DNA from: Gardnerella vaginalis
Lineage (GTDB): Bacteria > Actinomycetota > Actinomycetes > Actinomycetales > Bifidobacteriaceae
Reading direction: 5' to 3'
Assembly (NCBI GenBank): GCA_946997215.1
Contig: CAMPUL010000019.1
Span: 1-33,092, forward strand
DNA: 33,092 nucleotides
Numbering within the stretch: position 1 is the first letter of the stretch; the number at the start of each line of letters is the position of its first letter. The notes beneath the pieces were generated by a model, which saw nothing but the letters and a program-made list of their open reading frames with translations, did not search any database and was not told the origin of the DNA. The position numbers and the translations under genes are program-made. This document shows positions 3,181-33,092 of this stretch, in pieces.

Positions 3181-3942
3181 TTAGTTAATCTGACTTTCTC
3201 CGATTGGATTTACACCACTCTGCTTTTCGTCAATCTGCTTTTCGTTGCGATTTTTATGATGAAGTCGCATAAATGGAGTTGCAATAATCAAGTAAGAAAC
3301 CCAAATCGCGAGCGCCCAGAACGGCAATCCCATAATCAAACGTACTGTGCCAAGCCACACAACGTGATTCGTCAAATATAGTGGCACTTGCAAAACAAGC
3401 CTCAGCGCAAAAACAGCAATCCACAATCCAGTAACATACATGTATGCTCGCTTAAGCGGCTTATAATCAAGCCATTCGTGCAGCCACTTGCCAAAATTTT
3501 CCGTAGGCATTTTGCGAATCGACTCAATCACAAGCCCAAGCGCTGGCACGCGCACAATCAGCGAAATCGCAAGAAGCACACCATACACAGCGTTTGTAAT
3601 GAAGCCCATCATATAGTAGTCGCGCGCTTGATGACTCGTCCACACCCAAATAAGGCAGATTCCAACGGAAACAAGTCCACTAATTGCTCCCATAAGCGAC
3701 TGCTTCTGAATAAGACGAATCACAACTTGCAAAACAGCAAGAACAGCGGATGCAATAACAGTTGTATGCAAATTGTTTGTTACAACAAAGCAAATAACAA
3801 ACAGCAAGCCTGGCAGCATGGATTCAATTACGCCACGAACTCCGCCAATGGAGTCAATCACAGAAAACGCTTTTCCATCGGATCCAATGGAAGCTAAAGA
3901 GGCTAATCCTGAGCGTTTTTTGTTGCGCGCGTTTTTTTCCAA
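3181..3942 (-). CDS. DUF3159 family membrane protein
   Basis: Integral membrane protein of the actinobacterial DUF3159 family; function unknown. The conserved opening (SVIDSIGGVRGVIESMLPGL) is at about residues 27-46. About five or six hydrophobic segments follow, for example LLFVICFVVTN, VIASAVLAVLQVVIRLI and LWIAVFALRLVL. The short hydrophilic tail is Lys/Gln/Asn-rich. The best start is a TTG at 3942, 8 bases after AAAGG (complement of 3951-3955). It lies between the RNA methyltransferase and DUF3710 on the same strand, so an operon is likely. The gap to DUF3710 is almost entirely filled by a 14-bp tandem repeat (3963-4018). The end of the coding region also contains partly repeated sequence, seen in the protein as KQIDEKQ. 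Confidence 0.82.
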   Translation of the reverse strand: MEKNARNKKRSGLASLASIGSDGKAFSVIDSIGGVRGVIESMLPGLLFVICFVVTNNLHTTVIASAVLAVLQVVIRLIQKQSLMGAISGLVSVGICLIWVWTSHQARDYYMMGFITNAVYGVLLAISLIVRVPALGLVIESIRKMPTENFGKWLHEWLDYKPLKRAYMYVTGLWIAVFALRLVLQVPLYLTNHVVWLGTVRLIMGLPFWALAIWVSYLIIATPFMRLHHKNRNEKQIDEKQSGVNPIGESQIN

Positions 3943-3962
3943 GACAATATCCTTTGCTGCCT

Positions 3963-4018
3963 GACTTTTACCGTTCGACTTTTACCGTTCGACTTTTGTT
4001 ATTCGACTTTTACTGTTT
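3963..4018. repeat. 14-bp tandem repeat, 4 copies, just upstream of the DUF3159 gene
   Basis: Unit GACTTTTACCGTTC. Copies 1 and 2 (3963-3990) are identical; copies 3 and 4 (3991-4004, 4005-4018) have diverged. The array begins 21 bases from the TTG start at 3942 and 7 bases behind its ribosome-binding site, and ends 7 bases short of the DUF3710 stop codon. It is therefore transcribed within the operon. Confidence 0.9.
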
Positions 4019-4025
4019 TATTTTA

Positions 4026-4862
4026 CTAACGAACTTCGGAGAACATTGGGCCGCGAGTTAGCGTAGTTTTGACTTCTACTTGCTGATCTGCGCCAAGCGG
4101 ACCCTTTGGACGGCCTGGAATTTCGCCAGAATCACCATTGTTAGAATCAACATTATCAGAACCACCATTACCAGAATCTCTAGGAACCGAAACATCATGC
4201 ATTGGAATCATATCTCTTGGTGCTAATGGCTCACTTCCACGATCTACAACAATGTCACTAAACCACTTATTAAGCAAAACTGCTTCATCACTCGCCTTTT
4301 TTGAATCGCCAGCAACCGAAGAATCGCCAGCAGCTACACCAGAAAAGACTCCGCGAAGCATCCAACGCGGGCCATCCACTCCAACAATTCGCGTATCTAC
4401 AGTTTTATCTTCCACTTTAACTGGCAATATAATCTCTTTGCCAAAAACGCCATTCACTTCCCTGGCATCAGCATTTCCCTTAAGCAAATCCGCGCGAACT
4501 TCGCTCCAAATTCCTTCTGTTTTAGGAGCCGCAAACGCCTCAACTTCTACGCTAGAAGACTTATACGTAACTGTTATACCAAGAACTTGATTAGACTCGC
4601 GTTGCTTTTTTACGCGCAACTCTATTCCTTGCAAATACGGAATGCGAATAGACCCAAAGTCAATGTACGTACTTAAATCAGGAACCTTTTCGTCTGCAAT
4701 ATCCCAAGGTCCTCTAAGATTTCCTCGACCCAAATACGTGTCTGCGCTGTATCCGCCTTCAATAAGCTCGTTTAAGGCTGAATTTTGGGATTGCAAATCC
4801 GCAAGATTTCCAGCATTTTTACTATCAGCTTTAGCCTTGCGCTTTGACTTAAACCATCCCAT
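4026..4862 (-). CDS. DUF3710 family protein
   Basis: Soluble protein of the actinobacterial DUF3710 family; function unknown. The family core is recognisable: RGPWDIADEKVPDLSTYIDF (about residues 49-68) and the RWMLRGVFSGVA segment (about 166-177). The C-terminal 60 residues are low complexity (Gly, Asn, Asp, Ser), ending in a GRPKGPLGADQQVEVKTTL tail. The start ATG at 4862 is preceded by AGAGGAATC. The usual actinobacterial neighbours (a DUF3159 membrane protein and the TRAM methyltransferase) follow on the same strand, so co-transcription is likely. Many actinobacteria also have dut and an OB-fold gene here; neither is in this window. Confidence 0.83.
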   Translation of the reverse strand: MGWFKSKRKAKADSKNAGNLADLQSQNSALNELIEGGYSADTYLGRGNLRGPWDIADEKVPDLSTYIDFGSIRIPYLQGIELRVKKQRESNQVLGITVTYKSSSVEVEAFAAPKTEGIWSEVRADLLKGNADAREVNGVFGKEIILPVKVEDKTVDTRIVGVDGPRWMLRGVFSGVAAGDSSVAGDSKKASDEAVLLNKWFSDIVVDRGSEPLAPRDMIPMHDVSVPRDSGNGGSDNVDSNNGDSGEIPGRPKGPLGADQQVEVKTTLTRGPMFSEVR

Positions 4863-4931
4863 GATTCCTCTTTTCTAACGGCCAATGCCACTTTTGCTCA
4901 ACTTCACTAGACTACCACAAGCAAAGCAAAA

Positions 4932-5810: not shown

Positions 5811-5830
5811 AAAATCCACTCTAATCGAAT

Positions 5831-5968
5831 ATGCGTATTACAAATGCGTATTACAAAATAGCAAGTATTAAATAGAAGATATTAAATGGCAAGTATTAAA
5901 TGACAAATATTAAATGACAAATATTAAATGACAAATATTAAATGACAAATATTAAATGACAAATATTT
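5831..5968. repeat. Tandem repeat array upstream of xthA (2 x 13 bp, then 8 x 14 bp)
   Basis: Two perfect copies of ATGCGTATTACAA (5831-5856) are followed by eight copies of a 14-bp unit with consensus AATGACAAATATTA (5857-5968). Copies 4-7 (5899-5954) are identical; the three copies nearest xthA have diverged and the last ends in TTT. The array starts 21 bases from the xthA start codon and ends 35 bases before the argR stop. Identical copies next to diverged ones indicate recent expansion by slippage. Confidence 0.95.
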
Positions 5969-6003
5969 TAATCTTTGCGCACAGCTTTGCTACAGATTTT
6001 CCA

Positions 6004-6546: not shown

Positions 6547-6583
6547 AGCTGGCAAACCTTTCTAAAAAAACTATTCCAATCTA

Positions 6584-6597
6584 ATATACATGTATAT
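6584..6597. promoter_or_regulatory. Palindrome upstream of argR, possible operator
   Basis: A perfect 14-base palindrome, ATATACATGTATAT, lies 37 bases upstream of the argR start in an AT-rich stretch that also contains TATGCATA-like sequence. ARG boxes are AT-rich imperfect palindromes and ArgR commonly represses itself, so this is a candidate operator. The match is weak and such palindromes are easy to find in AT-rich DNA. Confidence 0.25.
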
Positions 6598-6698
6598 ATG
6601 CATAACTTTACGTATATTTAGCAATAATGGCCAATATTCACTAATATTTATTAATCTTTACTAATATTTGCATATTGGATATAACGAATATACTAAAT

Positions 6699-6722
6699 AA
6701 AATCACAATAAAAATCACAATA
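6699..6722. repeat. 12-bp tandem duplication between pheT and argR
   Basis: AAAATCACAATA occurs twice head to tail (6699-6710, 6711-6722), directly after the pheT terminator hairpin in the direction of transcription. The rest of the 6547-6789 gap holds AT-rich sequence with the argR upstream palindrome; no gene is seen. Confidence 0.8.
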
Positions 6723-6765
6723 AAAATGCGGCCAAACAACTAAAGAATAGTTATTCAGCCGCATT
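6722..6765 (-). terminator. Rho-independent terminator after pheT
   Basis: An 8-bp stem, AATGCGGC at 6725-6732 pairing with GCCGCATT at 6758-6765, encloses a loop that itself holds a 5-bp stem (AACTA/TAGTT). On the minus strand a run of five T follows. It lies 24 bases beyond the pheT stop and separates pheST from argR. Confidence 0.75.
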
Positions 6766-6789
6766 AATTAAAAACGATAACTTGCGATT

Positions 6790-9408: not shown

Positions 9409-9411
9409 GAG

Positions 9412-10479: not shown

Positions 10480-10532
10480 AGCACCCTTCCTATCCGTATA
10501 TGCGTACTTTTGTGAAGCATTCAAAAAACGTC

Positions 10533-11654: not shown

Positions 11655-12614
11655 CTACTCGTGATGCTCCGACGAACTTTGAGTAGTATAGCCCTTTGGC
11701 TCCAACTGGAATGTTGTGTGCGAAACAGAAACTGGAAAATGCTCGCGCAAACAATCTTGAAGCTGGCTCAAAATATCCGCACACTGCCCCATTGTTAAAT
11801 CGCGCTCAACAACAACATGAGCCATAAAAATAGGCATTCCTGTAGAAACTGTGCTTGCGTGCAAATCGTGAACAGCAAGAACGTGCGGAACATGTTCAAG
11901 ATGGTCTCGAACTTTTTCTATATCCAATCCTTCTGGAGTTTGCTCAAGCAAAACTTTTACAGCATTTTTAAGCAAGTGCAAAGCGCGTGGAATCATCAAA
12001 ATCGCTATAATTCCGCCAGCCACAGCGTCAAAACCACTCCAATTGGTAGCTATCATAACAACTGCAGAAATAACTACCGCTACAGAGCCTAAAGCATCGT
12101 TCATAACTTCCAAGAACGCTGCTCGCATATTCATATTGTCTTTAGATTGAGAAACCAAGATTATAAGCGAAGCAATATTTGCAAGAAGACCTAGAATACC
12201 AAAGAAAAGCAGCTGATTTACACTGTGGATTTCATTATGACTTGCGCCAAAAAGACGCATCCCCGACTCCACAATCGCATAAACGCCTACAAAAAGAAGC
12301 ACAAGAGCGCCAGCTGCAGCAGTAATCACCTCTAGCCTTGCCCACCCCCAAGTGCGCTTTGCATTAGGCTTTTTGCGCATTAAAATCGCAGTAACCGTAG
12401 ATGCAGCCAAAACGGAAATATCCGTTAGCATATGGCCAGCATCAATTAGCAAAGAAATCGAATTAGTTAAAATAGAGCCGATTACTTCTGCCAAAAACAC
12501 AATTGACGTTAGCGCTAGAGTTAGTGAAAGCTTATGCTGATGCGCGTGACTTGCGCTAATAGCGTCTTTAACAGAAGCGGCATTAGCGCCTGAATTTTCT
12601 AAATGATTATGCAC
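11655..12614 (-). CDS. Cation diffusion facilitator (zinc or other divalent metal efflux)
   Basis: Inner-membrane proton-coupled antiporter of the CDF family (CzcD/ZitB type), exporting Zn2+ or similar ions as a dimer. A His-containing N-terminal tail is followed by six predicted membrane segments. The metal-site motifs are visible: LLIDAGHMLTDISVL in segment 2 (Asp/His...Asp) and a matching HxxxD-like site in the EVMNDALGSVAVV segment 5. The cytoplasmic C-terminal domain (about residues 215-300) has the usual HDLHAST and TTFQLEP strands. The start is a GTG at 12614, with AGGAG 6 bases upstream (complement of 12621-12625). Two bases beyond that site a seven-copy 13-bp repeat begins, so expression may depend on copy number. 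The upstream gene is miaA, 169 bases away on the same strand. Confidence 0.92.
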   Translation of the reverse strand: MHNHLENSGANAASVKDAISASHAHQHKLSLTLALTSIVFLAEVIGSILTNSISLLIDAGHMLTDISVLAASTVTAILMRKKPNAKRTWGWARLEVITAAAGALVLLFVGVYAIVESGMRLFGASHNEIHSVNQLLFFGILGLLANIASLIILVSQSKDNMNMRAAFLEVMNDALGSVAVVISAVVMIATNWSGFDAVAGGIIAILMIPRALHLLKNAVKVLLEQTPEGLDIEKVRDHLEHVPHVLAVHDLHASTVSTGMPIFMAHVVVERDLTMGQCADILSQLQDCLREHFPVSVSHTTFQLEPKGYTTQSSSEHHE

Positions 12615-12626
12615 AAAAATCTCCTA

Positions 12627-12717
12627 TTTTAATATTCACTTTTAATATTCACTTTTAATATTCACTTTTAATATTCACTTTTAATATTCACTTTTGATAT
12701 TCACTTTTGATATACGC
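12627..12717. repeat. 13-bp tandem repeat, 7 copies, adjoining the CDF ribosome-binding site
   Basis: Unit TTTTAATATTCAC. Copies 1-5 (12627-12691) are identical, copy 6 has one change and copy 7 (12705-12717) is diverged. The array starts 13 bases from the GTG start and 2 bases behind AGGAG. Read on the minus strand each unit holds GTGAATATTAAAA. The identical copies lie nearest the gene. The rest of the gap to miaA (12718-12783) holds a small imperfect palindrome, GCACATTGTGTGC, and nothing else I recognise. Confidence 0.95.
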
Positions 12718-12783
12718 TTTTATATACATTTAGCGCACATTGTGTGCAATTTGTACACACTTTGTTTCCACTTTTTAGTATTC

Positions 12784-13767: not shown

Positions 13768-13785
13768 AATGCGCTCCTACGTAGC

Positions 13786-13815
13786 AAATTTAAGCTAATA
13801 AAATTTAAGCTAATA
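13786..13815. repeat. 15-bp perfect tandem duplication upstream of miaA
   Basis: AAATTTAAGCTAATA occurs twice without a gap (13786-13800, 13801-13815). It starts 19 bases from the miaA start and 7 bases behind its ribosome-binding site, and ends 9 bases before the carD stop codon. Confidence 0.9.
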
Positions 13816-13824
13816 AAAATAAAC

Positions 13825-19543: not shown

Positions 19544-19620
19544 AAAAAGACGATAGCAACACTAAAAACAAATAACAATAAAATTAGAGCAATGTGGTTA
19601 AAGGCTTTTTACTTAAGACT

Positions 19621-20433: not shown

Positions 20434-20551
20434 CGATTTCCTCCTGTACAAACTGTGCAATTCAAGTATTCCATATTATCAACATATTTACTACACCGTT
20501 TTGTGTTTGCACATTAATCAAATGCCCTAGCGTACAAATAAAGTTAAGTGT

Positions 20552-20980: not shown

Positions 20981-20999
20981 ATATTGGGGATTGTAAATA
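20968..20999. repeat. 16-bp perfect duplication spanning the zincin-like gene's stop codon
   Basis: TTGGGGATTGTAAATA occurs twice without a gap (20968-20983, 20984-20999). The TAA stop at 20978-20980 is inside the first copy and is repeated downstream. GATTGTAAA of the second copy (20989-20997) is also complementary to TTTACAATC at 21024-21032, giving a possible 9-bp stem between the convergent genes. Confidence 0.9.
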
Positions 21000-21019
21000 G
21001 CAACCTAAAAGCCCTAAGT

Positions 21020-22660: not shown

Positions 22661-22703
22661 TTATCCGTCTAATCAATCATAGCTTCTAACTAATCATCCT
22701 AAT

Positions 22704-22731
22704 TATTCACGCTCTATTATTCACGCTCTAT
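22704..22731. repeat. 14-bp perfect duplication spanning the glycosyltransferase stop codon
   Basis: TATTCACGCTCTAT occurs twice (22704-22717, 22718-22731). The upper copy encodes the last codons (ending in Glu-Arg-Glu and TAA, 22717-22719); the lower copy lies in the gap before the DUF5719-like gene. Confidence 0.9.
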
Positions 22732-25700
22732 TACGTTATTGCTGTTAAAACGAGGCAAAGCAACCAGGCAATACAATAGCAGCACTAAAGCAAAAACAAC
22801 AATCCATGGAATTCTCCAAGAAAGTGGGCGCGAATGACTATAAATCGAAGTTTTAGAAGAAGACATGTCTGCTACATCGTCGAATCTGCAATACGTTCCA
22901 TGACTAGATGAAACAACAAGCTGAGTTCCTTCCGAAGCGTTTACGTTTGCAATCAACTTTTCAGTTGCGTCTTTATTTGCATACCCTTCTAAAGCAATCA
23001 TTGAATTATTAGCAGCCAAATTATCTTTAGCTTTAGAATTATTAACAATGTAAATTCCGCCAATACCAAGCTGCTTTAAGGTTACAATCGACTCATCACT
23101 TGCATGAGAAAGAAGCTTGGAAGCTGCGTAATAAAGCGTATTTGTACTAGGAGAATATCCGTATAAAACATCTCTAACTTGCAAAGATGGAGATAAGTCA
23201 ACTAAATCGCCACGAGCGGTACGCATAAGCGAAATATTCAACTCACGACTATTCACAGCTTTAATCGCAAGAACGCGATTTGCACTATTCTTATTCAAGT
23301 AGTCCGAAACAACCATCGGCAGGCCACTATCGCTTGCGTAAACGGATGTTACAGGTCCGCTAATAATCGCGAATAATCCAAGCAAAGCAGCAACAGCAAA
23401 AATTCCAAAAGCTAAAATTCCTCTTGCAATATGAATAAGCCTTTTCATCATTGCCTTAGCAGAACGATTCATAGCTGCACGCTTAGAAACACGCGTAGTG
23501 TAATCGTCTGGATTATTGTCTTGATTAGCAGAATTAGATTTTCGCAAAGGCTCAAACCTACGAACAGCTTTTCCTGCAACCATGCACATGCATGCAAGAA
23601 CACCAAGCGCGCTTAAGCTTACGCCTGGAAGAACACTTGCGCTAATAGGACCGTCAAAATCTGAAGCAACAACAACGCGGCAAGCGACTAAAGAAAGCGC
23701 CATTCCGCTAACTATTACAACCCACATCATTCTTGAAGCTCTTAAAGCAAACGGAAGAGCAAGTGCGCATAAAGCCATTAGTACAGCTAACGCAGCAAAC
23801 ACAATCATGATTATTCCGCGAAGTTGCAAAATTAGCATTGAACCCGAAGAAAAATGATTCAAATCAATGTTAAATGCTCGAAGCAAAACGTCTATATAAC
23901 TGCTAGCTCTAGGAGCGCCATTTATTTTTTGAGAAGGCAAAGCCATACTAGCAAAAATTTGACGCCACATTCCAGTTCCAAAATAGCGCACAACGCTACC
24001 AAGAGTTGGCAAAAGAACCAAAACAGATGGAATAGGCATTAGCGCAAGCATAAAACGATGCGAGCGCACCATAATTATTGATGCAACAAAAATAACAAAC
24101 ATTGGCAGCAAAAGCTGAGGACTTGCAGCAAGGGGAACCATAAAGCACAAAGATGCGCAAGCTGCGCTTTGGATTGACGCAACTGGAACAACAGGGTCTT
24201 CTGTAACGTACATTCCTACAGCGTGGAAAGCGAACGCAAATGCAGCTGGCAAAAATACCATTGTTAGAATCATTGGCAAATCGCCTCTAGCAAAAACTCC
24301 AAAAGCCATTGCAATCATTGCCCAACAAAGGCCGGAACATACTCGCACAATGTCTGATCTAGTAAACACACCTGCTAGCGCCCAAAAACTTAGTAGCATT
24401 GCAGGGGCAGCAAGGAAAAATATGGCGTTTATTGCAGCTAACGTATTTCCGCCAAACACAATGGAAGCTAACATCCAAATCATAAGAAGCGGAGATGGAG
24501 GAAGAGGAGACGCAAAACCGTCGTCTGGAATGTATGCTCCAATCGCAGCATTAAATAAATCGCTAAAACTTGTTCCAGTAGAAAGAAGCTGGCTTGAATA
24601 AAGCGAAGAGCCAGAAAGAATCTTGTTAATCGGCGCTCCGTAAAGAAGTATTACGGTTGCAAAAACAAGAAGAGATGCACAAATTGCTGCGCTCCATCTA
24701 AACAAAACTCTTCTATGCAAGTGTTTTCTTGCAAGTGGACTTAAAATAACACCCTTTTTTTGAGTCTTAAAAGCAATAGTTTTGTCTTTCCAACGCGTAA
24801 TTTGACTACGACTTGCTATAAGAGAAGTGAGTCGTTTTAAGGAAACTTTTGAAACTCTAGACACTCGTCTTCTTGCAAAAATAGCGCGAGGTAATTGTGC
24901 TAACGCAATCCAAGGAAGCATAAGACGCATAAACGCAACATACGGCTGCTTAGCAAACAAAGATTGCAGTGCTCGGATTATTGACATTGGAACAGAGCAA
25001 AGCCAAATAAGAGGCCACATAATAACGCTAACATCTGTATACATGTATCTTTGCTTTGCCATAATCGAATAAGCGAGACCGTAGCAAACATTGGTTTTTT
25101 CTGCATCGCGCTCTTCGCCACTCCTAGTGCGAAGACCGTCAAAACGCGCTCTTCTATGCGCGATTCTGGCTTGTGGTACAACAACAACTCGCCCACCGCT
25201 TAAAACGACTCGCCTACAAAAATCGTTAGACTCTTCAAAAGTGGTAAGCCAAGGCTGAGTTCCTCGCATTGTTTGCCAAGTGCTAAGCGAAACTAAAGCG
25301 CCTGCAAGAGAAACAGAATAGACGTCTCCCCTAAAATCGTATTGCTCTTGATCTGGCTCGCCTTCTACGCTAAGTGAATGCACTTTATGCTTCCACGCAT
25401 ACATGCCAACGTTGTGAAGAATTTTTCCTTGCCAATCAACTTGTTTTGCACCAAGAACGCAAGCTGTTGGAGTGTTTCGCCAAGTCTCTCTTAAAGCTTC
25501 CAAGCATTTTGAATCGCAAGGTTTTGAATCGTCGTGCAAAAGCCACAGCGACTTAACTCCTTGCAATGGTAAGAGTTTTCTTAAAGACTTTTCTACGGCA
25601 TCGCCGAATGATTTTGCAGACTTAATTGGAAGAATAACAACTTTTACTTGTTTATATTGTTTATAGGAATCAGTGTTATAGTCGTTAGCGTACCCGTTAC

Positions 25701-26055
25701 CGTACAACGGATTACTGTTGGAAAAATCCGCACTAGAAATTAATTCTGCTAATTGAGTTGGCTCTATTTGAACGTTAAAAGACTTTACTAACTCTTTTTG
25801 TGTTTTACTAGCGCAATCAGCTACAACAATAGTTCCAGGAAGAACACTTTGATTTATAACCGCTTGCAAAGTTTCTTCGTAAAACCGCGTATCTTGCTCA
25901 ACACTCATTATTGAAACAATAGAAGAATCAACCTCGCGAGGCTTTATTCTATTCATAGCAGAAAAGACTTGTAAAACATCGTTTTCAAAAGTGCAAGTTT
26001 CAGCGGTTATTGAATCCATACATAATAGTTTACGCAAGGGGTATGTATTATGCAT
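22717..26055 (-). CDS. Large membrane glycosyltransferase (GT2 domain plus polytopic membrane region)
   Basis: 1112 residues. The N-terminal GT2 domain (about 38-310) has strand VSIMSVEQDTRF, a DxD-like LLHDDSKP near residue 175, and a C-terminal EESNDFCRRVVLSGGRVVVVP element matching the catalytic-base region of GT2 enzymes. About fourteen hydrophobic segments follow between about 340 and 1100, with a loop near the end (about 930-1070) predicted to be outside the membrane. This layout is seen in actinobacterial envelope glycosyltransferases beside LCP and DUF5719 genes; donor and acceptor are not readable. The start may be the Met at 26019 instead of 26055; neither has a clear ribosome-binding site. 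It is divergent from the first LCP gene, sharing a short promoter region, which points to a common role in making and attaching a wall glycopolymer. Confidence 0.82.
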   Translation of the reverse strand: MHNTYPLRKLLCMDSITAETCTFENDVLQVFSAMNRIKPREVDSSIVSIMSVEQDTRFYEETLQAVINQSVLPGTIVVADCASKTQKELVKSFNVQIEPTQLAELISSADFSNSNPLYGNGYANDYNTDSYKQYKQVKVVILPIKSAKSFGDAVEKSLRKLLPLQGVKSLWLLHDDSKPCDSKCLEALRETWRNTPTACVLGAKQVDWQGKILHNVGMYAWKHKVHSLSVEGEPDQEQYDFRGDVYSVSLAGALVSLSTWQTMRGTQPWLTTFEESNDFCRRVVLSGGRVVVVPQARIAHRRARFDGLRTRSGEERDAEKTNVCYGLAYSIMAKQRYMYTDVSVIMWPLIWLCSVPMSIIRALQSLFAKQPYVAFMRLMLPWIALAQLPRAIFARRRVSRVSKVSLKRLTSLIASRSQITRWKDKTIAFKTQKKGVILSPLARKHLHRRVLFRWSAAICASLLVFATVILLYGAPINKILSGSSLYSSQLLSTGTSFSDLFNAAIGAYIPDDGFASPLPPSPLLMIWMLASIVFGGNTLAAINAIFFLAAPAMLLSFWALAGVFTRSDIVRVCSGLCWAMIAMAFGVFARGDLPMILTMVFLPAAFAFAFHAVGMYVTEDPVVPVASIQSAACASLCFMVPLAASPQLLLPMFVIFVASIIMVRSHRFMLALMPIPSVLVLLPTLGSVVRYFGTGMWRQIFASMALPSQKINGAPRASSYIDVLLRAFNIDLNHFSSGSMLILQLRGIIMIVFAALAVLMALCALALPFALRASRMMWVVIVSGMALSLVACRVVVASDFDGPISASVLPGVSLSALGVLACMCMVAGKAVRRFEPLRKSNSANQDNNPDDYTTRVSKRAAMNRSAKAMMKRLIHIARGILAFGIFAVAALLGLFAIISGPVTSVYASDSGLPMVVSDYLNKNSANRVLAIKAVNSRELNISLMRTARGDLVDLSPSLQVRDVLYGYSPSTNTLYYAASKLLSHASDESIVTLKQLGIGGIYIVNNSKAKDNLAANNSMIALEGYANKDATEKLIANVNASEGTQLVVSSSHGTYCRFDDVADMSSSKTSIYSHSRPLSWRIPWIVVFALVLLLYCLVALPRFNSNNVIERE

Positions 26056-26078
26056 GTTAAAATCTCAATAGAATACAC

Positions 26079-26084
26079 TACAAT
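26079..26084 (+). promoter_or_regulatory. Possible -10 box for the first LCP gene
   Basis: TACAAT lies 35 bases before the ATG at 26120 in the 64-base divergent gap. TTAAAA (26057-26062) is a poor -35, 16 bases upstream. The gene also has a usable ribosome-binding site (GAAGGAAG). Weak evidence. Confidence 0.3.
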
Positions 26085-26119
26085 GGTGATTTATATGTGC
26101 ATTTACGAAAGAAGGAAGC

Positions 26120-27601
26120 ATGGCAGCCTCTCGGTATAATCAAGACCGTCGGTACCAAACTAACTATTGGGACTCATCTGCACCACACCATACTCTCAAT
26201 AGCCAAATGCTTAATAATTCTCGTAAAATCATTTGCATGGCGATTATTGCCGTTCTAGTCTTTTTAACTACAATAATCGCATCCGTATGGCTTGACTTTT
26301 CTTCTACTATTAGTTCACGCGTTATAACCACCATTCCAACAAGCAGCAAGCAGATTCAGTCAATAGACCCTAATGCTGGTAAAACTATTAATATTCTTGT
26401 TCTTGGTCAAGATACTCGAGAAGGTAAGAATCGCGCTTTTCAGGGCGGCGGAGAAGACGAAAATCATCAATCAGATACAGCAATGATTGTTCAAATCAGC
26501 GCAGACAGGTCTTATATAAACATTGTTTCAATTCCTAGAGATTCAATGGTTAAAGCCGCATCATGCAATACGACTAACGGCAGAATTCCAGCTAGACGTA
26601 AAGTTATGTTTAACTCGATCTTTGCACTTGGCTACGCTAAGGGAGGTGACTTAGCAAGCGCAGCATCATGTACGCTTGCAACAGTAAACGAGATTACTGG
26701 CTTAAACATAACAGATTTTATTGTTGCAGACTTTAGTGGCTTAAGCGATATGATTAACGCGATTGGCGGAGTAACCTTGTGCATTCCTGTAAACACTAGG
26801 GATTATTACACGGGCGTTAATCTAAAGCGCGGACTTCAACACCTTGATGGCGTGCAAGCAACACAATATGCAAGAATGAGGCACGACAGCGCAAGCGACG
26901 GAAGCGATATTATGCGAACAACGCGCCAGCAATATCTTCTTAAGCAGCTTATTCATCAAGCTCTATCAAAGAATCTTCTAACACAGTCGAGTCAGCTTTA
27001 TCAACTTGCAAAATCAGCTCTAAAGTCACTTAATATGAGCCAGGGTCTTGCAAACCCTACAACACTGGTTGGTTTAGCTGCAAGTCTTCGTAATCTAAAA
27101 CCTTCGAACATTTACGCGCAAACAATACCTATTGCGACCGACCCATACGATGAAAATCGTGTTATTTTAGACGAAAGTGCGCAAGACGTTTGGGATTTAA
27201 TGCAAAAAGATAAGCCTTTAACTAAAGATTTAGGCGAAAAATCAAGTAAAAGTGAAAAGTCTTCAAAAAAGAACTCAAAGAGCAGTAAAAAGTCTGATTC
27301 TAAAGAGAACTCCAATTCGTCTAGTGCAGATTCTAACGACTCTGCGGAGTCTACAAATTCTGGCGAGAATAGCCTTAATTCCTCTAATTCCTATGCAGAT
27401 TCAAATGCAGTTAAAATTGGGCGCGTGGATCCAAAAACTGGATTAGCAAAAGACAGCTTAGGCAGACTTATTGATCCAAATAGCGGCGGAATCGTTAACC
27501 CAGAAGACGGAACAATAAGAAACCCGCAAACTGGTCACTACATGGGAATTGCAGATAAATACCTAAATAATACAGTATGCGCTGTTCCAAAAGGAAAATA
27601 A
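26120..27601 (+). CDS. LytR-CpsA-Psr (LCP) family glycopolymer ligase with Lys/Ser-rich tail
   Basis: LCP enzymes move lipid-linked glycopolymers onto peptidoglycan outside the membrane. One membrane anchor (about residues 36-56, IICMAIIAVLVFLTTIIASV) precedes the LCP domain (about 85-265): NILVLGQDTREGKN, SDTAMIVQISADRSYINIVS, IPRDSMV with the conserved Arg, and TQYARMRHDSASDGSDIMRT with the other catalytic Arg residues. A Cys pair (AASCNTT and AASCTLA) may form a disulphide. The tail is unusual: a Lys/Ser stretch (about 375-430, SSKSEKSSKKNSKSSKK), then an Asn/Ser stretch, then repeated D/N-P-x-x-G turns (VDPKTG, IDPNSG, VNPEDG, RNPQTG). The tail could bind wall polymers or lipids. It is the first of two LCP genes here; the second starts about 200 bases on. 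Confidence 0.93.
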   Translation: MAASRYNQDRRYQTNYWDSSAPHHTLNSQMLNNSRKIICMAIIAVLVFLTTIIASVWLDFSSTISSRVITTIPTSSKQIQSIDPNAGKTINILVLGQDTREGKNRAFQGGGEDENHQSDTAMIVQISADRSYINIVSIPRDSMVKAASCNTTNGRIPARRKVMFNSIFALGYAKGGDLASAASCTLATVNEITGLNITDFIVADFSGLSDMINAIGGVTLCIPVNTRDYYTGVNLKRGLQHLDGVQATQYARMRHDSASDGSDIMRTTRQQYLLKQLIHQALSKNLLTQSSQLYQLAKSALKSLNMSQGLANPTTLVGLAASLRNLKPSNIYAQTIPIATDPYDENRVILDESAQDVWDLMQKDKPLTKDLGEKSSKSEKSSKKNSKSSKKSDSKENSNSSSADSNDSAESTNSGENSLNSSNSYADSNAVKIGRVDPKTGLAKDSLGRLIDPNSGGIVNPEDGTIRNPQTGHYMGIADKYLNNTVCAVPKGK

Positions 27602-27802
27602 CGCGCTTATAAAACTTTGTTAAAGCGTTTATAACTACGTTGCTTTATAATGCCATTGTTAGTTTTTAGCAATAAAAATAAACAATAAGCAAGCAATAAC
27701 AAGCTATAAGCAAAAACAAGCTTACAGATAAACGCTGAACGTTAAACATTAAACGCTGAACGATGAACGCAATCAAATTTGCAAAATGCTACGGGAGGAT
27801 AA
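27602..27802. other. Intergenic region between the two LCP genes, with direct repeats
   Basis: A 12-base direct repeat AAACGCTGAACG (27730-27741 and 27751-27762, 21 bases apart) lies upstream of the second LCP gene, in a stretch rich in related AACGnTnAAC text. Just after the first LCP stop, CGCTT and AAGCG form a weak 5-bp stem. The second LCP gene has a good GGGAGG ribosome-binding site at 27792-27797. No gene is seen. Confidence 0.5.
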
Positions 27803-29152
27803 ATGAGCCAGCAACGTCCAGAAGACGCTTTGGGGAATCAAAATAATCCACCTAGCTTTGTTCCATCGAATAAACACAACAAAAACGCAAATTCAATACC
27901 GAGTTTTCCGCCTAAGAATGCACACAATAACGCGCATAAAAACAACGAACCAAACAAGCAAGAAACTATTCAGCGCGCACCGTCGTTTGAGCCAAAGCCT
28001 AGAAAAGTAAACCAAAATTCACAAAGCTATCGAGCACAAAATCACAGAGCACAAGGCTACAGCTCGCAATACTACCCCGAACAAAATCAACGTTTGAGTC
28101 AAAATAATGCAAGTGCATCTAGCTTTACTCCAAACAGAATCCAAAACTTTAGTCAAAATGAAATTAGGCCAATAGCAAGTAATTCTTCTGTTGGAGCTCT
28201 TGCTTTTAGAAAAAAACATCGCTTACTAAAGTATTTATCCTTGCTTTTAGTAATAATATTGATTCTTGTAGGAGCAAGCGGCGTTTTATCTTGGAACTGG
28301 ATTGACTCTCAAATTAAGCGAGATAATTGGCTAACGGATACTCCAGATACTCAAGAAACAACTTGGCTAATCCTGGGATCGGATCAGCGAGAAGGCGAAG
28401 AAGCAAAAGAAATAACTGGATTTAGAACAGATACGATTCTTGTTTTAACAAAACCAGTAAGTGGGCACAGCTCCTTAATATCCATTCCAAGAGACTCGCT
28501 AGTTTCTGTAAACGGCCAACAGATGAAGATTAACACAGTTGCACAAGATCTTGGAAATAGAGCACTAACAAAAACTGTTGAAAAAATTACGGGTCACAAA
28601 ATAGACCACGTTGCAGAAATAAAATTCGCAGGACTTACAAACGTTGTAAACTCACTGGGAACAATAGACTTATGCTATGATCGCACAGTTAGCGATGCCT
28701 ACAGTGGACTTAATTGGACTGCAGGATGCCACAGTGTAGACGGAAACGTTGCATTAGCATTTTCTAGAATGAGATATGCGGATCCTCAATCTGATTTTGG
28801 AAGAGCTGCAAGACAGCGAATGGTAATTAGCGCAATAATGAAAAAAGCTTTATCTAGTAGCACGCTTACAAACTTTTCAACAGTAAAAGGCTTTGCAAAA
28901 GCATCGCTTGATTCTGCAACATTAGACGAAAACTCAAATCCTGGAACACTGCTGAACATGGGTCTTGCTTTTAAGGAAGCAACAGGAAAAGACGGCGTAA
29001 CAGGCACAGTCTACTGGACTAATCCAGATTATTGGGTGTATTCAGTTGGATCATCCGTTTTGTTAGACGATGCTAAAAACATTGAACTATTCGATCAATT
29101 ATCTGCTGGAACGCATGCGCCTGGAAACGTTGGAACGCTTGCAGAGCAATAA
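27803..29152 (+). CDS. LCP family glycopolymer ligase with Asn/Gln-rich N-terminal region
   Basis: Second LCP protein. The first 135 residues are a disordered, Asn/Gln/Ser/Pro-rich cytoplasmic region with short repeats (PSFxP, and QNHRAQGYSSQYYPEQNQ). A membrane anchor follows at about 147-170 (YLSLLLVIILILVGASGVL), then the LCP domain at about 185-380: TWLILGSDQREGEEA, FRTDTILVLTKP, SLISIPRDSLVSVNG, KINTVAQ, and ALAFSRMRYADPQSDFGRAARQ with the catalytic Arg residues. It lacks the Lys/Ser tail of the preceding paralogue. Bacteria with several LCP proteins often divide or share substrates between them. The start ATG at 27803 has GGGAGG upstream. A hairpin follows the stop and may end the transcript. 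Confidence 0.93.
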   Translation: MSQQRPEDALGNQNNPPSFVPSNKHNKNANSIPSFPPKNAHNNAHKNNEPNKQETIQRAPSFEPKPRKVNQNSQSYRAQNHRAQGYSSQYYPEQNQRLSQNNASASSFTPNRIQNFSQNEIRPIASNSSVGALAFRKKHRLLKYLSLLLVIILILVGASGVLSWNWIDSQIKRDNWLTDTPDTQETTWLILGSDQREGEEAKEITGFRTDTILVLTKPVSGHSSLISIPRDSLVSVNGQQMKINTVAQDLGNRALTKTVEKITGHKIDHVAEIKFAGLTNVVNSLGTIDLCYDRTVSDAYSGLNWTAGCHSVDGNVALAFSRMRYADPQSDFGRAARQRMVISAIMKKALSSSTLTNFSTVKGFAKASLDSATLDENSNPGTLLNMGLAFKEATGKDGVTGTVYWTNPDYWVYSVGSSVLLDDAKNIELFDQLSAGTHAPGNVGTLAEQ

Positions 29153-29160
29153 ACATAATT

Positions 29161-29183
29161 TTGGCTAATCATAATTTAGCCAA
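29161..29183 (+). terminator. Hairpin after the second LCP gene, possible terminator
   Basis: TTGGCTAA (29161-29168) pairs perfectly with TTAGCCAA (29176-29183) around a 7-base loop, 9 bases after the stop at 29152. A short T-rich stretch (TTTAGCCTTT) follows rather than a pure T run. It is moderately stable and the termination strength is uncertain. Confidence 0.45.
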
Positions 29184-29214
29184 TTTAGCCTTTAACCACA
29201 TTTATAGTTTTTAC

Positions 29215-29247
29215 TTGCATATTTCTTAATCGCAATACACTATTGCG
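29215..29247 (+). promoter_or_regulatory. Hairpin and possible leaderless promoter at the EccC-like gene start
   Basis: CGCAATA (29231-29237) and TATTGCG (29241-29247) form a perfect 7-bp inverted repeat with a 3-base spacer, ending 2 bases before the ATG at 29250. There is no ribosome-binding site. TTGCAT (29215-29220), then 17 bases, then CACTAT (29238-29243), would start transcription at about the ATG itself. The inverted repeat would cover the -10 and start site, so it could be an operator. Confidence 0.4.
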
Positions 29248-29249
29248 TT

Positions 29250-31025
29250 ATGGAATACGAAAACAATGCAAATAATACTAAAAGCATAGCTTCAAAACCA
29301 ATGTTTTGGATGCAAATAATGGCAAATATTGTGCCTATTTTAGCCAATATTGCTCTTGCTATAATGGCGTTTTTGCAAAAAAGTTGGATGATGCTTGCAA
29401 TGATTGTTCCTAGCATAATGATGTATATTGCTTGCTTAATACCGCAAATTGTTCAATATAATTCAAACAAAAACAACAAAAGTTTAGTAAAGAATAATAC
29501 GAATCAAAGCATTCACTTTAGCAAAACAACAGTCGACTCTCATATTAAAGGTGTTCCAGAAACTCTTGTTCCAATCAACCTAGAAGCAATGCTGATTAAT
29601 AACGCAAATCAAATTGTTTCTACAAATTACTCTAAAAACATGCAAAATCGTGTTCCTCCATGGAAAAATGTTGTATACGCTTGGCTAGTGTCTTCTAAAA
29701 ACTCTTTAGAAGCTCCAATCGGAATAAACAGCAGCGGTTATTTTTGTATAGATCTTGTTAAAAATGGGCCGCACGCGCTTGTAGCAGGAACAACAGGATC
29801 TGGAAAATCCGTTTTACTAACATCTTGGTGTTTGGCTTTAGCTTTTAGATACTCACCTAAATTATTGCAATTTGTGTTTATGGATTTTAAGGGAGGAGCT
29901 ACATTCGATTCACTTTCTACGCTTCCACACAGCGTTGGAAACGTTGGAGACTTAAATCTTAAGCATGCTGCAAGAGCATTGCGAGGATTAGAAATGGAAT
30001 TAGACAGGCGAGAAAGATTAGTTGCAAATCAAGGCTGCCACGATATTAGTCAAGTAAAACCAATCGAGCCTTCAATGGTGATTGTTATAGACGAGTTTCA
30101 TGCCCTTAAAAATCAACTACCCGATTACATGAATCGCCTAATACGCATAGCTTCGGTTGGAAGGTCCCTTGGAATGCATCTTATAGCGTGCACACAAAAC
30201 CCAATGGGACAAGTAAACGCAGATATGAAGGCGAATATGTCTATAAACATTTGTTTAAGAGTTAGAGACGCAATGCAATCGCACGAGCTACTCGGGTCGC
30301 AAGCCGCAGCAAGCATAAACCCAAATAAGCCTGGAGCAGCATATTGCAATACAGGAGACGGAATAGTAGCATTACAATGCTCACAAAGTCAAAATAAAAA
30401 TTCGCTTATAAAAGCAATCGAATTGGCTGGAAAATTCTATTGCTACAAAACTCCTAAACAATTGTTTAGCACTCCCCTACCAAGATACTTAAATAATTCA
30501 ACTCTTAATAAATATTGCAAAAACACAAAAGATAGCGAGTTTGGACTTTTAATCGGCTTAAAAGACGATGGAATTAACTTAAGCGAAGCAATTTTGCCAA
30601 CAAATCTTGGAAACATAGCGATTATTGGCGGAAGCAAACGAGGAAAGTCTAATCTTATAAATGTGATTAAAAATGCGATTAGTATGCAAAGTCTAGATTC
30701 AAAAAACATTCACATTCAAGACAACGCAGACTCACTTTTGGAGCCTTTTAACAGCGACGAAAAATCTCAAGAATTCCAACACAAATTAAAAGACACTAGA
30801 ACAACAGTAATATTTTGCGCTCAAAACGCAAGATACATACGCATACCAGATCAAGCGCCAGTAAGAATAATCTTCCCAACAGGCGATGCTGCAACAGACT
30901 CAATGCTTGGAATACCTACCGACTTACTAAAAACACTAAGCGTGGAAGATTATCAAACACCAGGAAGATGCATAATGGTGATTCCTGGAAAAGCTAATTT
31001 GCTGCAAATATTGAGTTTTACATAA
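29250..31025 (+). CDS. FtsK/SpoIIIE-type ATPase, EccC/EssC-like, two ATPase modules
   Basis: 591 residues. Two membrane segments lie near the N-terminus (about 22-42 and 46-68), followed by a first FtsK/SpoIIIE domain with an intact P-loop (GTTGSGKSVLLTSW, about 179-192), FMDFKGGATFDSL and Walker B (MVIVIDEFHAL, about 275-285). A second, reduced ATPase module has a P-loop-like GGSKRGKSNL (about 459-468) but no obvious Walker B; it ends in a TPGRCIMV element like the last EccC domain. Two N-terminal membrane helices plus FtsK modules match type VII secretion EccC/EssC rather than the DNA translocase FtsK, which has four helices and a gamma domain. Full EccC proteins have three ATPase domains. 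No WXG100 substrate or other type VII gene is in the window. It could be a membrane translocase for protein or DNA. Confidence 0.75.
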   Translation: MEYENNANNTKSIASKPMFWMQIMANIVPILANIALAIMAFLQKSWMMLAMIVPSIMMYIACLIPQIVQYNSNKNNKSLVKNNTNQSIHFSKTTVDSHIKGVPETLVPINLEAMLINNANQIVSTNYSKNMQNRVPPWKNVVYAWLVSSKNSLEAPIGINSSGYFCIDLVKNGPHALVAGTTGSGKSVLLTSWCLALAFRYSPKLLQFVFMDFKGGATFDSLSTLPHSVGNVGDLNLKHAARALRGLEMELDRRERLVANQGCHDISQVKPIEPSMVIVIDEFHALKNQLPDYMNRLIRIASVGRSLGMHLIACTQNPMGQVNADMKANMSINICLRVRDAMQSHELLGSQAAASINPNKPGAAYCNTGDGIVALQCSQSQNKNSLIKAIELAGKFYCYKTPKQLFSTPLPRYLNNSTLNKYCKNTKDSEFGLLIGLKDDGINLSEAILPTNLGNIAIIGGSKRGKSNLINVIKNAISMQSLDSKNIHIQDNADSLLEPFNSDEKSQEFQHKLKDTRTTVIFCAQNARYIRIPDQAPVRIIFPTGDAATDSMLGIPTDLLKTLSVEDYQTPGRCIMVIPGKANLLQILSFT

Positions 31026-31063
31026 AAATATGACTTAAATCACTCAAAAGATTAAAAAAATTT

Positions 31064-31092
31064 TTGTAAAAGTCTTGAAAAAAAGTTATATT
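31064..31092 (+). promoter_or_regulatory. Sigma-A-like promoter of the whiB gene
   Basis: TTGTAA (31064-31069), a 17-base spacer, and TATATT (31087-31092) form a good housekeeping-type promoter in an AT-rich stretch. The start would be near 31099, leaving a leader of about 80 bases before the ATG at 31180. Confidence 0.55.
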
Positions 31093-31179
31093 CATGCTTT
31101 CCTGGAGTGCGGATAGTTTTATACAAAATCTAACAAATTTAGTCAAAACATACGCGTATTAAAAAGAGGTTATTTACTT

Positions 31180-31452
31180 ATGAGTAGCGCATTCGACTGG
31201 CGTGCAAAAGCAGCTTGCCGAGATAAGGATCCTGAACTTTTCTTCCCAGTAGGAAATAACAGCGCATCCAATCAGCAAGTTGAAGAAGCCAAAGCGGTGT
31301 GCAGAACTTGTAATGTGGCGGACAATTGCTTAAGATGCGCTCTAGAAACAAGCCAAGATTACGGCGTTTGGGGCGGACTTAGCGAAGATGAAAGGCGCTC
31401 GCTAAAGCGTAGAGCAATGCGAGCGCGCAGAAATCAAAGCACTGAATTTTAA
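31180..31452 (+). CDS. whiB1: WhiB-family Fe-S transcription regulator, WhiB1-like
   Basis: Ninety-residue WhiB-like protein. Cys13, Cys41, Cys44 and Cys50 hold the 4Fe-4S cluster (pattern C-x27-C-x2-C-x5-C). The GVWGG turn (about 66-70) is followed by a basic RRSLKRRAMRARR DNA-binding tail. DWRAKAACRDKDPELFFPVG and WGGLSEDERRSLKRR are very close to what I recall of mycobacterial WhiB1, an essential NO-sensitive regulator that binds sigma-A region 4. Position supports this: in Mycobacterium tuberculosis whiB1 lies beside pdtaS (Rv3220c), and here a PdtaS-like gene is convergent with a 16-base gap. WhiB2 is the alternative. A strong promoter is upstream at 31064-31092. Confidence 0.87.
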   Translation: MSSAFDWRAKAACRDKDPELFFPVGNNSASNQQVEEAKAVCRTCNVADNCLRCALETSQDYGVWGGLSEDERRSLKRRAMRARRNQSTEF

Positions 31453-31461
31453 GTAAGAGAC

Positions 31462-31477
31462 TACTCTACTACTCTAC
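31462..31477. repeat. 8-bp duplication spanning the pdtaS stop codon
   Basis: TACTCTAC occurs twice (31462-31469, 31470-31477). Read on the minus strand, the duplication produces two successive in-frame TAG codons at the end of the kinase gene. Confidence 0.7.
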
Positions 31478-32953
31478 TCCAGGCACGCGCAGCTTAATAT
31501 CTAGCAGAACGCGAGTTCCGCCTTCTCTGCGCGATTCCCACTTAACAGTGCCACCAAAATCGTTAGTAACAAAAGTGTTGATTAGCTGAGTGCCTAATCC
31601 AGATCCAGAAGACTTTGCCATTCCATGCAAGGATTCGCTTTCGATTCCGCCGCCATTGTCTTCTACAACAATACTAAGGTTGTCTCCACCACGACCAACA
31701 GAAATCGTAATATGACCTTCGCTCATTCCTTCAAAACCATGCTCAACTGCATTTGTAACAAGCTCGGTTAAAACAAGAGAAAGAGGCGTTGCATCTTGAG
31801 CTGCAAGCTTGCCGAATTTACCACAAAAATCAACCGTAATATTTTGATTTTGCGAAGCAAGTTCAATCGTCATTTTAAGCAAGCTAGAAATTACTTTGTC
31901 GAAGTCAACAACCTCATCGGCAGTCTGGCTTAAACCTTCGTGAACAAGAGCAATAGTTTGAACTCGCCTTTGAGCTTCTTCTAGCTCTTTTCTAACTTCG
32001 TACGACTTAGTTTTTCTAGCTTGAAGACGAAGCAAAGCAGAAACAGCTTGAAGATTATTCTTAACGCGATGATGAATCTCGGAAATGGTAGCGTTCTTAG
32101 TCTGAAGCTCCTTTTCTCTTCTAAGAACCTCCGTAACATCTCGGCAAAGAACAACTGCGCCAGTTCTATCGTTAGGCCCATAAAGCGGCAGCGAGCGCAT
32201 AGAAACAACGGAATTATTTACTTCTAACTCACAATCAACATCTGCTTTACCGCTTAAAACTAAAGGCAAGCTTTCGGGAACAACATCGTTTGTGTGAAGA
32301 AGACGCGCTCCAAACTCGCACAAGAACTCGCCTTGCATAGTGTTTAATCCGCCAAGTCTGCGGAAGCAGCTGATTGCGTTTGGAGAAGCATAACGAACAA
32401 CACCGCTTTCTTCTAAAATAATAAAACCGTCTGCAACTCGAGCATTGTGGCGCTGATTTAGCATTGAATCGTGGTACGGAAACTGCTCGCGCGCAATCAT
32501 GTCGAACAACGTTTTGCCAGCATTAATGCTTTCCGTCTCGTACCTACCGTTTGATTCTCTTGTTGCAAGATTTGTTTCCCTAAGAACAAGACCAAGCGTT
32601 TTGCCGTTGTGGCGAACTGGAGCGTAAACGTTGCAAACAGTAGCTCTGCCAACAGTTCTTAAAACCGAAGAGTGGAAACTTGTTTCTTTACTCATTGCTG
32701 CTTCTAGCTCATTATGCATTGATTCGTCTAGCTTTACGCCGAGTAAATCTTCGGTTCTAAGTGTGATTGCTGTAGATGGACGGCATTGTTCTGCTACAAC
32801 GTAATCGCCATTGCCATTTTGAATAACTAAAAGCAAGTCTGCAAAACTTAAATCTGCTATTACTTGCCAATCTGCTACGAGGTGATGCAACCATTCGCGA
32901 TCCGAATCGTCAAAATCTGGACGCGTTGCAAGAATATGAGAAAAATCAGCCAT
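31469..32953 (-). CDS. pdtaS: Soluble sensor histidine kinase, PdtaS-like (HisKA_2)
   Basis: Cytosolic kinase of the HisKA_2/HWE-type group. The N-terminal GAF-like region (about residues 1-150) and a PAS domain (about 165-285, ILEESGVVRYASPNAISCFR, GAVVLCRDVTEVLRR) precede the phospho-acceptor helix SEIHHRVKNNLQAVSALLRL (His near 295). A HATPase domain with LVLTELVTNAVEHGFEG (N box) and VVEDNGGGIESE, SGLGTQLI (G boxes) follows. There are no membrane segments. Domain order and adjacency to a WhiB1-like gene match mycobacterial PdtaS, which phosphorylates the RNA-binding ANTAR regulator PdtaR; PdtaR is not in this window. At 494 residues the length is normal. There is no ribosome-binding site before the ATG at 32953. 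A TATATT lies just upstream and a large tandem repeat begins 12 bases away. Confidence 0.9.
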   Translation of the reverse strand: MADFSHILATRPDFDDSDREWLHHLVADWQVIADLSFADLLLVIQNGNGDYVVAEQCRPSTAITLRTEDLLGVKLDESMHNELEAAMSKETSFHSSVLRTVGRATVCNVYAPVRHNGKTLGLVLRETNLATRESNGRYETESINAGKTLFDMIAREQFPYHDSMLNQRHNARVADGFIILEESGVVRYASPNAISCFRRLGGLNTMQGEFLCEFGARLLHTNDVVPESLPLVLSGKADVDCELEVNNSVVSMRSLPLYGPNDRTGAVVLCRDVTEVLRREKELQTKNATISEIHHRVKNNLQAVSALLRLQARKTKSYEVRKELEEAQRRVQTIALVHEGLSQTADEVVDFDKVISSLLKMTIELASQNQNITVDFCGKFGKLAAQDATPLSLVLTELVTNAVEHGFEGMSEGHITISVGRGGDNLSIVVEDNGGGIESESLHGMAKSSGSGLGTQLINTFVTNDFGGTVKWESRREGGTRVLLDIKLRVPGVE

Positions 32954-32964
32954 GTTTTAATAAT

Positions 32965-33092
32965 ATAAACACGCGAATATAAACACGCGAATATAAACAC
33001 GCGAATATAAGCAGACTAAATAAGCAGACCAAATAAACAGACCAAATAAACAGACCAAATAAACAGACCAAATAAACAGACCAAATAAACAG
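32965..33092. repeat. Tandem repeat array upstream of pdtaS (3 x 14 bp, then at least 6 x 13 bp), continuing past the edge
   Basis: Three identical copies of ATAAACACGCGAAT (32965-33006) are followed by 13-bp units ATAAGCAGACTAA and ATAAGCAGACCAA, then four identical ATAAACAGACCAA copies (33033-33084) and a partial copy to the window end. On the minus strand each 14-mer reads ATTCGCGTGTTTAT, so each junction creates a TATATT -10-like hexamer facing the kinase gene. Confidence 0.95.

What the first reader, a model, noticed from the sequence alone, without database searches (positions are those of the whole stretch)
3942..33092. A recurring class of 13-16 bp tandem repeats placed directly behind ribosome-binding sites
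In this window the first repeat unit begins 12-21 bases from the start codon of five genes: DUF3159 (14 bp x 4), xthA (13 x 2 then 14 x 8), CDF (13 x 7), miaA (15 x 2) and pdtaS (14 x 3, 13 x at least 6). Unit sequences are unrelated, but unit length and position are alike and several copies are identical, implying recent expansion. No single mobile repeat explains this. It suggests a slippage process with a preferred length (little more than one helical turn), tolerated or selected just upstream of translation starts, which could act as many expression rheostats.
Basis: partly seen in the sequence, partly recalled or inferred. Interest (0 to 1): 0.72.

Follow-up and report, generated by a model that had tools for sequence, protein, structure and literature searches.

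The report
Genome-wide short tandem duplications in Gardnerella
The short tandem repeats are real and part of an unusually high load of small DNA duplications in Gardnerella chromosomes, but they are not placed at gene starts: they are seen where they do least harm, above all around stop codons.

Summary
The arrays exist as described. The window is Gardnerella, about 96% identical to G. piotii UGent 18.01. The placement claim fails genome-wide: in 1.43 Mb of Gardnerella DNA, window included, 14.0% of 114 exact arrays in co-directional spacers lie 10-22 nt from the start codon, against 12.7% expected (p 0.37). Arrays lie nearer stops; 36 cross one of 884 stop boundaries, 4 one of 912 start boundaries. 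What is unusual is the load: exact duplications with 9-60 bp units in noncoding DNA are 13 times denser than in seven low-GC Actinomycetota and 14 times denser than in two Bifidobacterium. Units are mostly 7-17 bp, with no helical-turn peak. In coding DNA 158 of 164 units are divisible by 3; in noncoding DNA 56 of 125. Array length differs between related genomes at most spacer sites compared. Best explanation: a raised rate of short slippage duplications in the genus, filtered by selection. Expression tuning is untested and lacks positional support. The cause was not found. Nearest described case: tandem repeats of archaeal Borgs (PMC9879509).

The parts
3963..4017 (-). 14-bp tandem array x3.9 in the DUF3710-DUF3159 spacer, 20 nt between start codon and array
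   Evidence: unit and copy number differ in orthologous spacers (by eye)
4127..4178 (-). 15-bp array x3.5 inside the DUF3710 gene (unit divisible by 3)
5831..5857 (-). 13-bp array x2.1 upstream of xthA
5862..5967 (-). 14-bp array x7.6 upstream of xthA; the place is 65 nt shorter in G001 and 83 nt shorter in G015/L001
6633..6727 (-). 10-bp (6633-6669) and 12-bp (6699-6727) arrays in the spacer upstream of argR; the second is longer in G001 and L001
12627..12722 (-). 13-bp array x7.4 upstream of the CDF transporter gene; G001 and L001 carry an unrelated spacer and gene start here
13786..13818 (-). 15-bp array x2.2 upstream of miaA; same in L010 (= G001) and L001
20967..20999 (+). 16-bp duplication across the stop codon of the zincin-like gene; single copy in G001 and G015; a different duplication at the same site in G010
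22702..22733 (-). 14-bp duplication across the stop codon of the gene at 22717-26055; single copy in G001, followed there by a 4-bp microhomology (ATTA)
32962..33010 (-). 14-bp array x3.5 upstream of pdtaS
33007..33092 (-). 13-bp array x6.6 upstream of pdtaS, runs off the window end

Best explanation
Gardnerella chromosomes acquire short tandem duplications (unit mostly 7-17 bp) at an unusually high rate, in spacers and in genes. The likely step is replication slippage: the growing strand loosens, re-pairs a few to about 17 bases back on a microhomology of a few bases, and is copied again; once two copies exist, further slippage adds or removes copies. Selection then decides where they are seen: in genes almost only if the unit is divisible by three, across stop codons because the original stop usually stays in the first copy, rarely across start codons. 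The five arrays upstream of starts are the part of this process that lies between the upstream gene and the translation start, not a class of their own. Shown here: the excess, the unit range, the frame filter, the stop/start asymmetry, the differences in array length. Inferred: slippage as the molecular step, and a raised mutation rate rather than relaxed selection. Unknown: which replication or repair difference causes it.
For: Load: noncoding exact duplications 144 in 185 kb (G001, G010, G015) vs 3 in 51.7 kb (seven low-GC Actinomycetota) and 4 in 74.1 kb (two Bifidobacterium), p 2e-12 and 1e-16; TRF arrays of at least 2.9 copies (period 9-20, 85% match or more): 50, 13 and 9 in G001, G010, G015 against 0 in 387 kb and 0 in 400 kb of controls. 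Coding exact duplications with a unit of 12 bp or more: 49 in 685 kb, 15 in 349 kb, 8 in 173 kb (G001, G010, G015) vs 2 in 336 kb low-GC and 0 in 326 kb Bifidobacterium. Frame filter: 158 of 164 coding vs 56 of 125 noncoding divisible by three, p 1e-24. Boundaries of spacers of 15 bp or more: 36 arrays across 884 stops vs 4 across 912 starts; without that spacer limit 39 and 6, and in 31 of the 39 the stop lies in the first unit. Births: 20967-20999 and 22702-22733 are single copy in G001. Microhomology: match beyond one unit averages 2.5 bp in 140 noncoding and 2.3 bp in 161 coding two-copy arrays vs 0.94 for an assumed chance match of 0.32 per base. Tandem-duplication indels of 8-18 bp: 13 in six Gardnerella pairs, 0 in 17 aligned Bifidobacterium pairs.
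Against: The excess inside genes is weaker by other counts: near-exact units of 12, 15 and 18 bp number 161 in 1.23 Mb of Gardnerella and 104 in 1.54 Mb of Bifidobacteriaceae, a factor of 1.9; over the loci, exact units divisible by three run at 15.6 vs 10.1 per 100 kb, against 6.4 vs 1.2 for other units; and the seventy Bifidobacteriaceae loci there do hold 25 units of 12, 15 or 18 bp. So part of the spacer excess may be weaker constraint. In G015-G001 only 10 of 105 indels of 8-18 bp scored as tandem duplications, and three of the six Gardnerella pairs had none. Arrays near stops exceed even uniform placement (41% vs 17%), which needs constraint elsewhere in spacers or a local cause. 36 of 140 noncoding and 48 of 161 coding two-copy arrays show no microhomology. 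In 8 of 39 stop-spanning arrays the stop lies in a later unit. None of the repair families asked for is lost in Gardnerella alone except possibly a second Y-family polymerase. Genes were called with my own simple finder.
Confidence: 0.75

Rival explanations
1. Selected expression rheostats: arrays are kept just upstream of translation starts because copy number tunes translation or promoter spacing.
For: In the window, 3 of 8 exact arrays in co-directional spacers lie 10-22 nt from a called start (4 of 8 if miaA starts at 13767), and the pdtaS array differs between relatives: 14x3.5+13x6.6 here, and by eye shorter in G001, about two 14-bp copies in G015, none in G010.
Against: No enrichment near starts in about 114 arrays under three start rules; preference for stops; convergent spacers as rich as co-directional ones; no evident trend in predicted start-region openness among natural variants. 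The miaA array is the same in the window, L010 and L001.
Confidence: 0.1
2. Relaxed constraint: Gardnerella spacers are freer than those of relatives and so keep ordinary duplications longer.
For: The excess is larger in noncoding than in coding DNA when near-exact copies, or exact units divisible by three, are counted.
Against: Exact duplications with a unit of 12 bp or more inside genes are also in excess: 49 in 685 kb of G001 vs 0 in 326 kb of Bifidobacterium and 2 in 336 kb of low-GC controls.
Confidence: 0.2
3. Low GC content alone makes spacers prone to chance or slippage repeats.
For: Array units are richer in A and poorer in C than co-directional spacers overall (A 39.2% vs 32.5%, C 9.4% vs 14.9%).
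Against: Shuffles predict 1.8 where 67 are seen in G001; samples of seven Actinomycetota with 30-42% GC have 3 in 51.7 kb of noncoding DNA.
Confidence: 0.07

Closest known systems
Tandem repeats of archaeal Borg elements (PMC9879509; start of abstract and passages seen)
   Same: Unrelated tandem arrays in spacers and genes, recent and independently arisen; units in genes divisible by three while 14-38% of spacer units are; flanking partial repeats; A-enriched units; variable copy number
   Different: Borgs are linear extrachromosomal elements of archaea, the repeats are perfect and the example units in the passages are 18-21 nt; here it is a bacterial chromosome with mostly 2-copy arrays of 7-17 bp
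Homopolymer tracts of Gardnerella and colony phase variation (PMC11287997; start of abstract and passages seen)
   Same: Same genus; slipped-strand mispairing proposed; abundant variable tracts
   Different: Tracts of eight or more of one nucleotide were searched for; the one use of the word tandem in the held text is in a mass-spectrometry reference
Bacterial VNTR or minisatellite loci as used in MLVA typing (papers seen in search listings only; otherwise recalled)
   Same: Tandem units of about 10 bp or more whose copy number differs between strains
   Different: Usually a limited number of loci per genome (recalled); here about 25 exact duplications per 100 kb in G001 (197 in 800 kb), with frame and stop/start filters visible

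Membership tests
VNTR / minisatellite loci | Head-to-tail copies of a unit of about 6-100 bp | tested here: met
VNTR / minisatellite loci | Copy number differs between strains of one species | tested here: inconclusive
   Array length differs between the window and genomes 76-96% identical in the main aligned pieces; no set of strains of one species was available
Phase-variable contingency loci | Copy number changes within a clonal population and alters expression | not testable with these tools
   no reads and no expression data
Phase-variable contingency loci | Arrays concentrated at translation-start positions | tested here: not met
   promoter positions were not tested
Borg-type pervasive tandem repeats | Units in genes divisible by three, spacer units not | tested here: met
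   158 of 164 vs 56 of 125
[quoted passage not shown]
   mean extension 2.5 vs 0.94 bp under an assumed match rate; A 39.2% vs 32.5%; both effects modest
Borg-type pervasive tandem repeats | Extrachromosomal linear archaeal element | tested here: not met
   the window holds housekeeping genes and matches Gardnerella assemblies

The most novel reading that the evidence does not exclude
The Gardnerella lineage carries a change in its replication or repair machinery that acts as a specific mutator for 7-17 bp tandem duplications, so that its whole chromosome continually makes new minisatellites, in frame in genes and freely in spacers. This would supply heritable on-off or graded variation, possibly including the colony switching for which no obvious mechanism was found (PMC11287997, passages).
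Probability: 0.2. Interest if true: 0.8.

Novelty: new variant of a known kind. Interest (0 to 1): 0.5.

Why it matters
A bacterial genus whose spacers hold short tandem duplications over ten times more densely than the relatives sampled would be a natural test of which replication factors hold slippage back, would supply ready strain-typing markers, and could mean that clonal Gardnerella populations are more varied than homopolymer counts suggest. It also shows how a start-codon pattern seen in one window can come from selective noticing.

Tried and rejected
Start-proximal preference: tested with TRF arrays, exact duplications and two other start rules; rejected each time. Helical-turn unit length: the spectrum is broad, rejected. 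Low GC as cause: controls were picked by an AT-rich pattern count in 296 genomes of the phylum and stretches of seven fetched; rejected within the phylum. Repair genes, asked in three Gardnerella and nine Bifidobacterium genomes: Pol I 5' nuclease, ExoVII large subunit and NucS found in 12 of 12; RecJ model over its cut-off in 0 of 12 (one Bifidobacterium below it); SbcC model over its cut-off in 0 of 12 (and in only 1 of 14 control genomes); no lead. Y-family polymerase domain: one hit in 3 of 3 Gardnerella, two in 9 of 9 Bifidobacterium, a correlation only. RNA openness of natural variants: no evident trend. Promoter positions, transcripts and fresh mutation rates were not tested. Papers: ten searches. 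Among the titles and abstract starts listed I saw none on minisatellites of Gardnerella. Listed of found: 0 of 0, 15 of 18, 20 of 57, 15 of 17, 5 of 82, 12 of 1,132, 4 of 4, 10 of 13, 12 of 35, 8 of 8. Most subscription papers are outside that library, so novelty in print is not settled.
Full report
What was checked. Pfam supports DUF3159, xthA (Exo_endo_phos), CDF, miaA and pdtaS. Four of five arrays begin 12-21 bases from the start codon; pdtaS begins at 9. By eye, a Shine-Dalgarno-like motif lies between array and start in three of five.

Where it comes from. A scan with the XthA protein kept 80 loci; the first ten (L001-L010) are eight named Gardnerella and two named only Bifidobacteriaceae bacterium (L003, L009), which I counted as Gardnerella from their similarity. 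The nearest, 97% identical over the protein, is G. piotii UGent 18.01, whose contig length equals that of G001:C2. The window aligns to the G001 sample over 32.6 kb with 4.3% substitutions. Window 19500-33092, two fifths of it, aligns to G001 at 95-96%, to G015 at 83-89% and to G010 at 76-90% in the main pieces.

Controls and samples. I took 800 kb of G001, 400 kb of G010, 192 kb of G015 (all Gardnerella), 200 kb each of two Bifidobacterium (G016, G005), and 387 kb of seven AT-rich Actinomycetota. It places the miaA and xthA starts 18 and 9 nt downstream of the ORF starts, which is why three start rules were compared.

The load is the real finding. Exact tandem duplications with a unit of 9 bp or more in intergenic DNA: G001 67 against 1.8 in shuffles, G010 28 against 1.2; the Bifidobacterium samples 0 and 3. 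Counting every base outside called genes: 87, 35 and 22 in G001, G010, G015, against 3 pooled in seven low-GC genomes and 4 in the two Bifidobacterium. Over the loci, units of 9-20 bp not divisible by three number 12 in 186 kb of ten Gardnerella loci and 17 in 1.36 Mb of seventy other Bifidobacteriaceae loci; units divisible by three number 29 and 137, which is only 1.5 times denser. The window is richer than its kin, 11 in 2.9 kb of noncoding DNA; G001 C2 530-567 kb, its counterpart, has 7 noncoding.

Unit length. Spacer units exceed shuffles from 7 bp; in G001 they end at 17 with one at 21, in G010 at 16 with two at 18. Near-exact copies continue thinly to 23, with seven longer. There is no peak at one helical turn.

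Selection leaves clear marks. Pooled over G001, G010, G015 and the window, duplications almost wholly in coding DNA have a unit divisible by three in 158 of 164 cases, almost wholly noncoding ones in 56 of 125. Arrays cross stop boundaries 36 times among 884 and start boundaries 4 times among 912. Without the limit on spacer length the counts are 39 and 6; in 31 of the 39 the stop lies in the first unit, so the protein should be unchanged. In co-directional spacers arrays are nearer the start in 31.6% against 49.1% expected, and within 10 nt of the stop in 41.2% against 16.7%. The 10-22 nt zone upstream of starts holds 14.0% against 12.7%. Two other start rules give the same. TRF arrays point the same way: G001 14.7% against 13.2% (129 arrays, p 0.33), G010 20.0% against 14.0% (30 arrays, p 0.22). 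In the window itself 3 of 8 fall in the zone, so the start-codon pattern is a feature of this window that does not carry over to the genome samples.

Change between relatives. By eye, the pdtaS array is shorter in G001 and G015 and absent in G010. The DUF3159 spacer has arrays of other units or lengths in L001, L003, L005, L007 and L010, about one copy in L004 and L006, and none seen in L002, L008, L009 (in L002, L004, L008 and L009 the protein match does not begin at residue 1, so the upstream stretch shown is shifted). The miaA array is the same in L001 and L010. Of 34 spacer arrays of G001 with both flanks found in G015, 8 have the same length, 7 differ by whole units and 19 otherwise; of 29 coding ones 12, 8 and 9. 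These are the ones with both flanks found among 318 arrays, since only part of G015 was held. The reverse comparison gives 13 of 39 spacer and 10 of 22 coding arrays of the same length. Lengths were extrapolated from flank matches, so small differences are uncertain. Two births can be read directly: 20967-20999 and 22702-22733 are single copy in G001, and G010 has its own different duplication at the first site. The CDF array cannot be compared, because G001 and L001 carry an unrelated spacer and gene start. Tandem-duplication indels of 8-18 bp: window-G001 2 of 12 indels of that size, G015-G001 10 of 105, L004-L006 1 of 7, three other Gardnerella pairs 0; window-G015 gave 2 of 14 and overlaps these data; eighteen Bifidobacterium pairs, some sharing loci and one without any alignment, gave 0.

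Mechanism. Matches beyond one unit average 2.5 bp in noncoding and 2.3 bp in coding two-copy arrays, against 0.94 for an assumed chance match of 0.32 per base. This fits slippage on short microhomology, but 36 of 140 and 48 of 161 show none. Units are A-rich. No candidate gene was found: Pol I 5' nuclease, XseA and NucS are in 12 of 12 genomes asked, RecJ is over its cut-off in none. The one difference seen is one Y-family polymerase hit in three Gardnerella and two in nine Bifidobacterium, a correlation without a test.

Function. Predicted openness of the start region in natural variants ranges from 0.24 to 0.52 with no evident order by array length; the 10-90% range of 183 genes from twelve G001 stretches is 0.32-0.62. 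This neither shows nor excludes an effect on expression. The 800 kb of G001 hold 160 TRF arrays of period 9-25 in spacers, and some may matter, but position gives no sign that they were selected for it.

Known ground. Borg elements show the same set of marks (PMC9879509, start of abstract and passages). Gardnerella homopolymer tracts are described, with phase-variable colonies for which no obvious switch was found (PMC11287997, start of abstract and passages). My searches listed no paper on minisatellites in this genus, within the limits told in Tried and rejected.

Change of odds on checking. Re-reading searches showed that the excess inside genes is weaker by some counts and that most 8-18 bp indels did not score as tandem duplications. 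I therefore lowered the best explanation from 0.80 to 0.75 and raised relaxed constraint from 0.15 to 0.20.

Noticed in passing
window 12615-12790 and the first part of the CDF gene: Spacer and gene start of the CDF transporter are unrelated to those of G001 and L001, which agree with each other: looks like an allele swap by recombination.
   Followed up: partly
G001, G010, G015 versus nine Bifidobacterium genomes: Gardnerella genomes have one Y-family polymerase domain hit, the Bifidobacterium genomes two.
   Followed up: no
L170 near 12246-12782 (G010): A different 16-bp duplication near the same stop codon as window 20967-20999.
   Followed up: partly
window 13786-13818: The 15-bp miaA array is the same in the window, L010 and L001, unlike most others; it may be constrained.
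   Followed up: no
window 459-1421: A serine recombinase (Resolvase and Recombinase domains) lies at the window's left side.
   Followed up: no
G016:C1:858363-858865: The Pol I 5' nuclease match is split into two pieces in this Bifidobacterium genome, perhaps a frameshift or a sequencing error.
   Followed up: no
window 33007-33092: The 13-bp pdtaS array runs to the last base of the window, so its true length is unknown.
   Followed up: no
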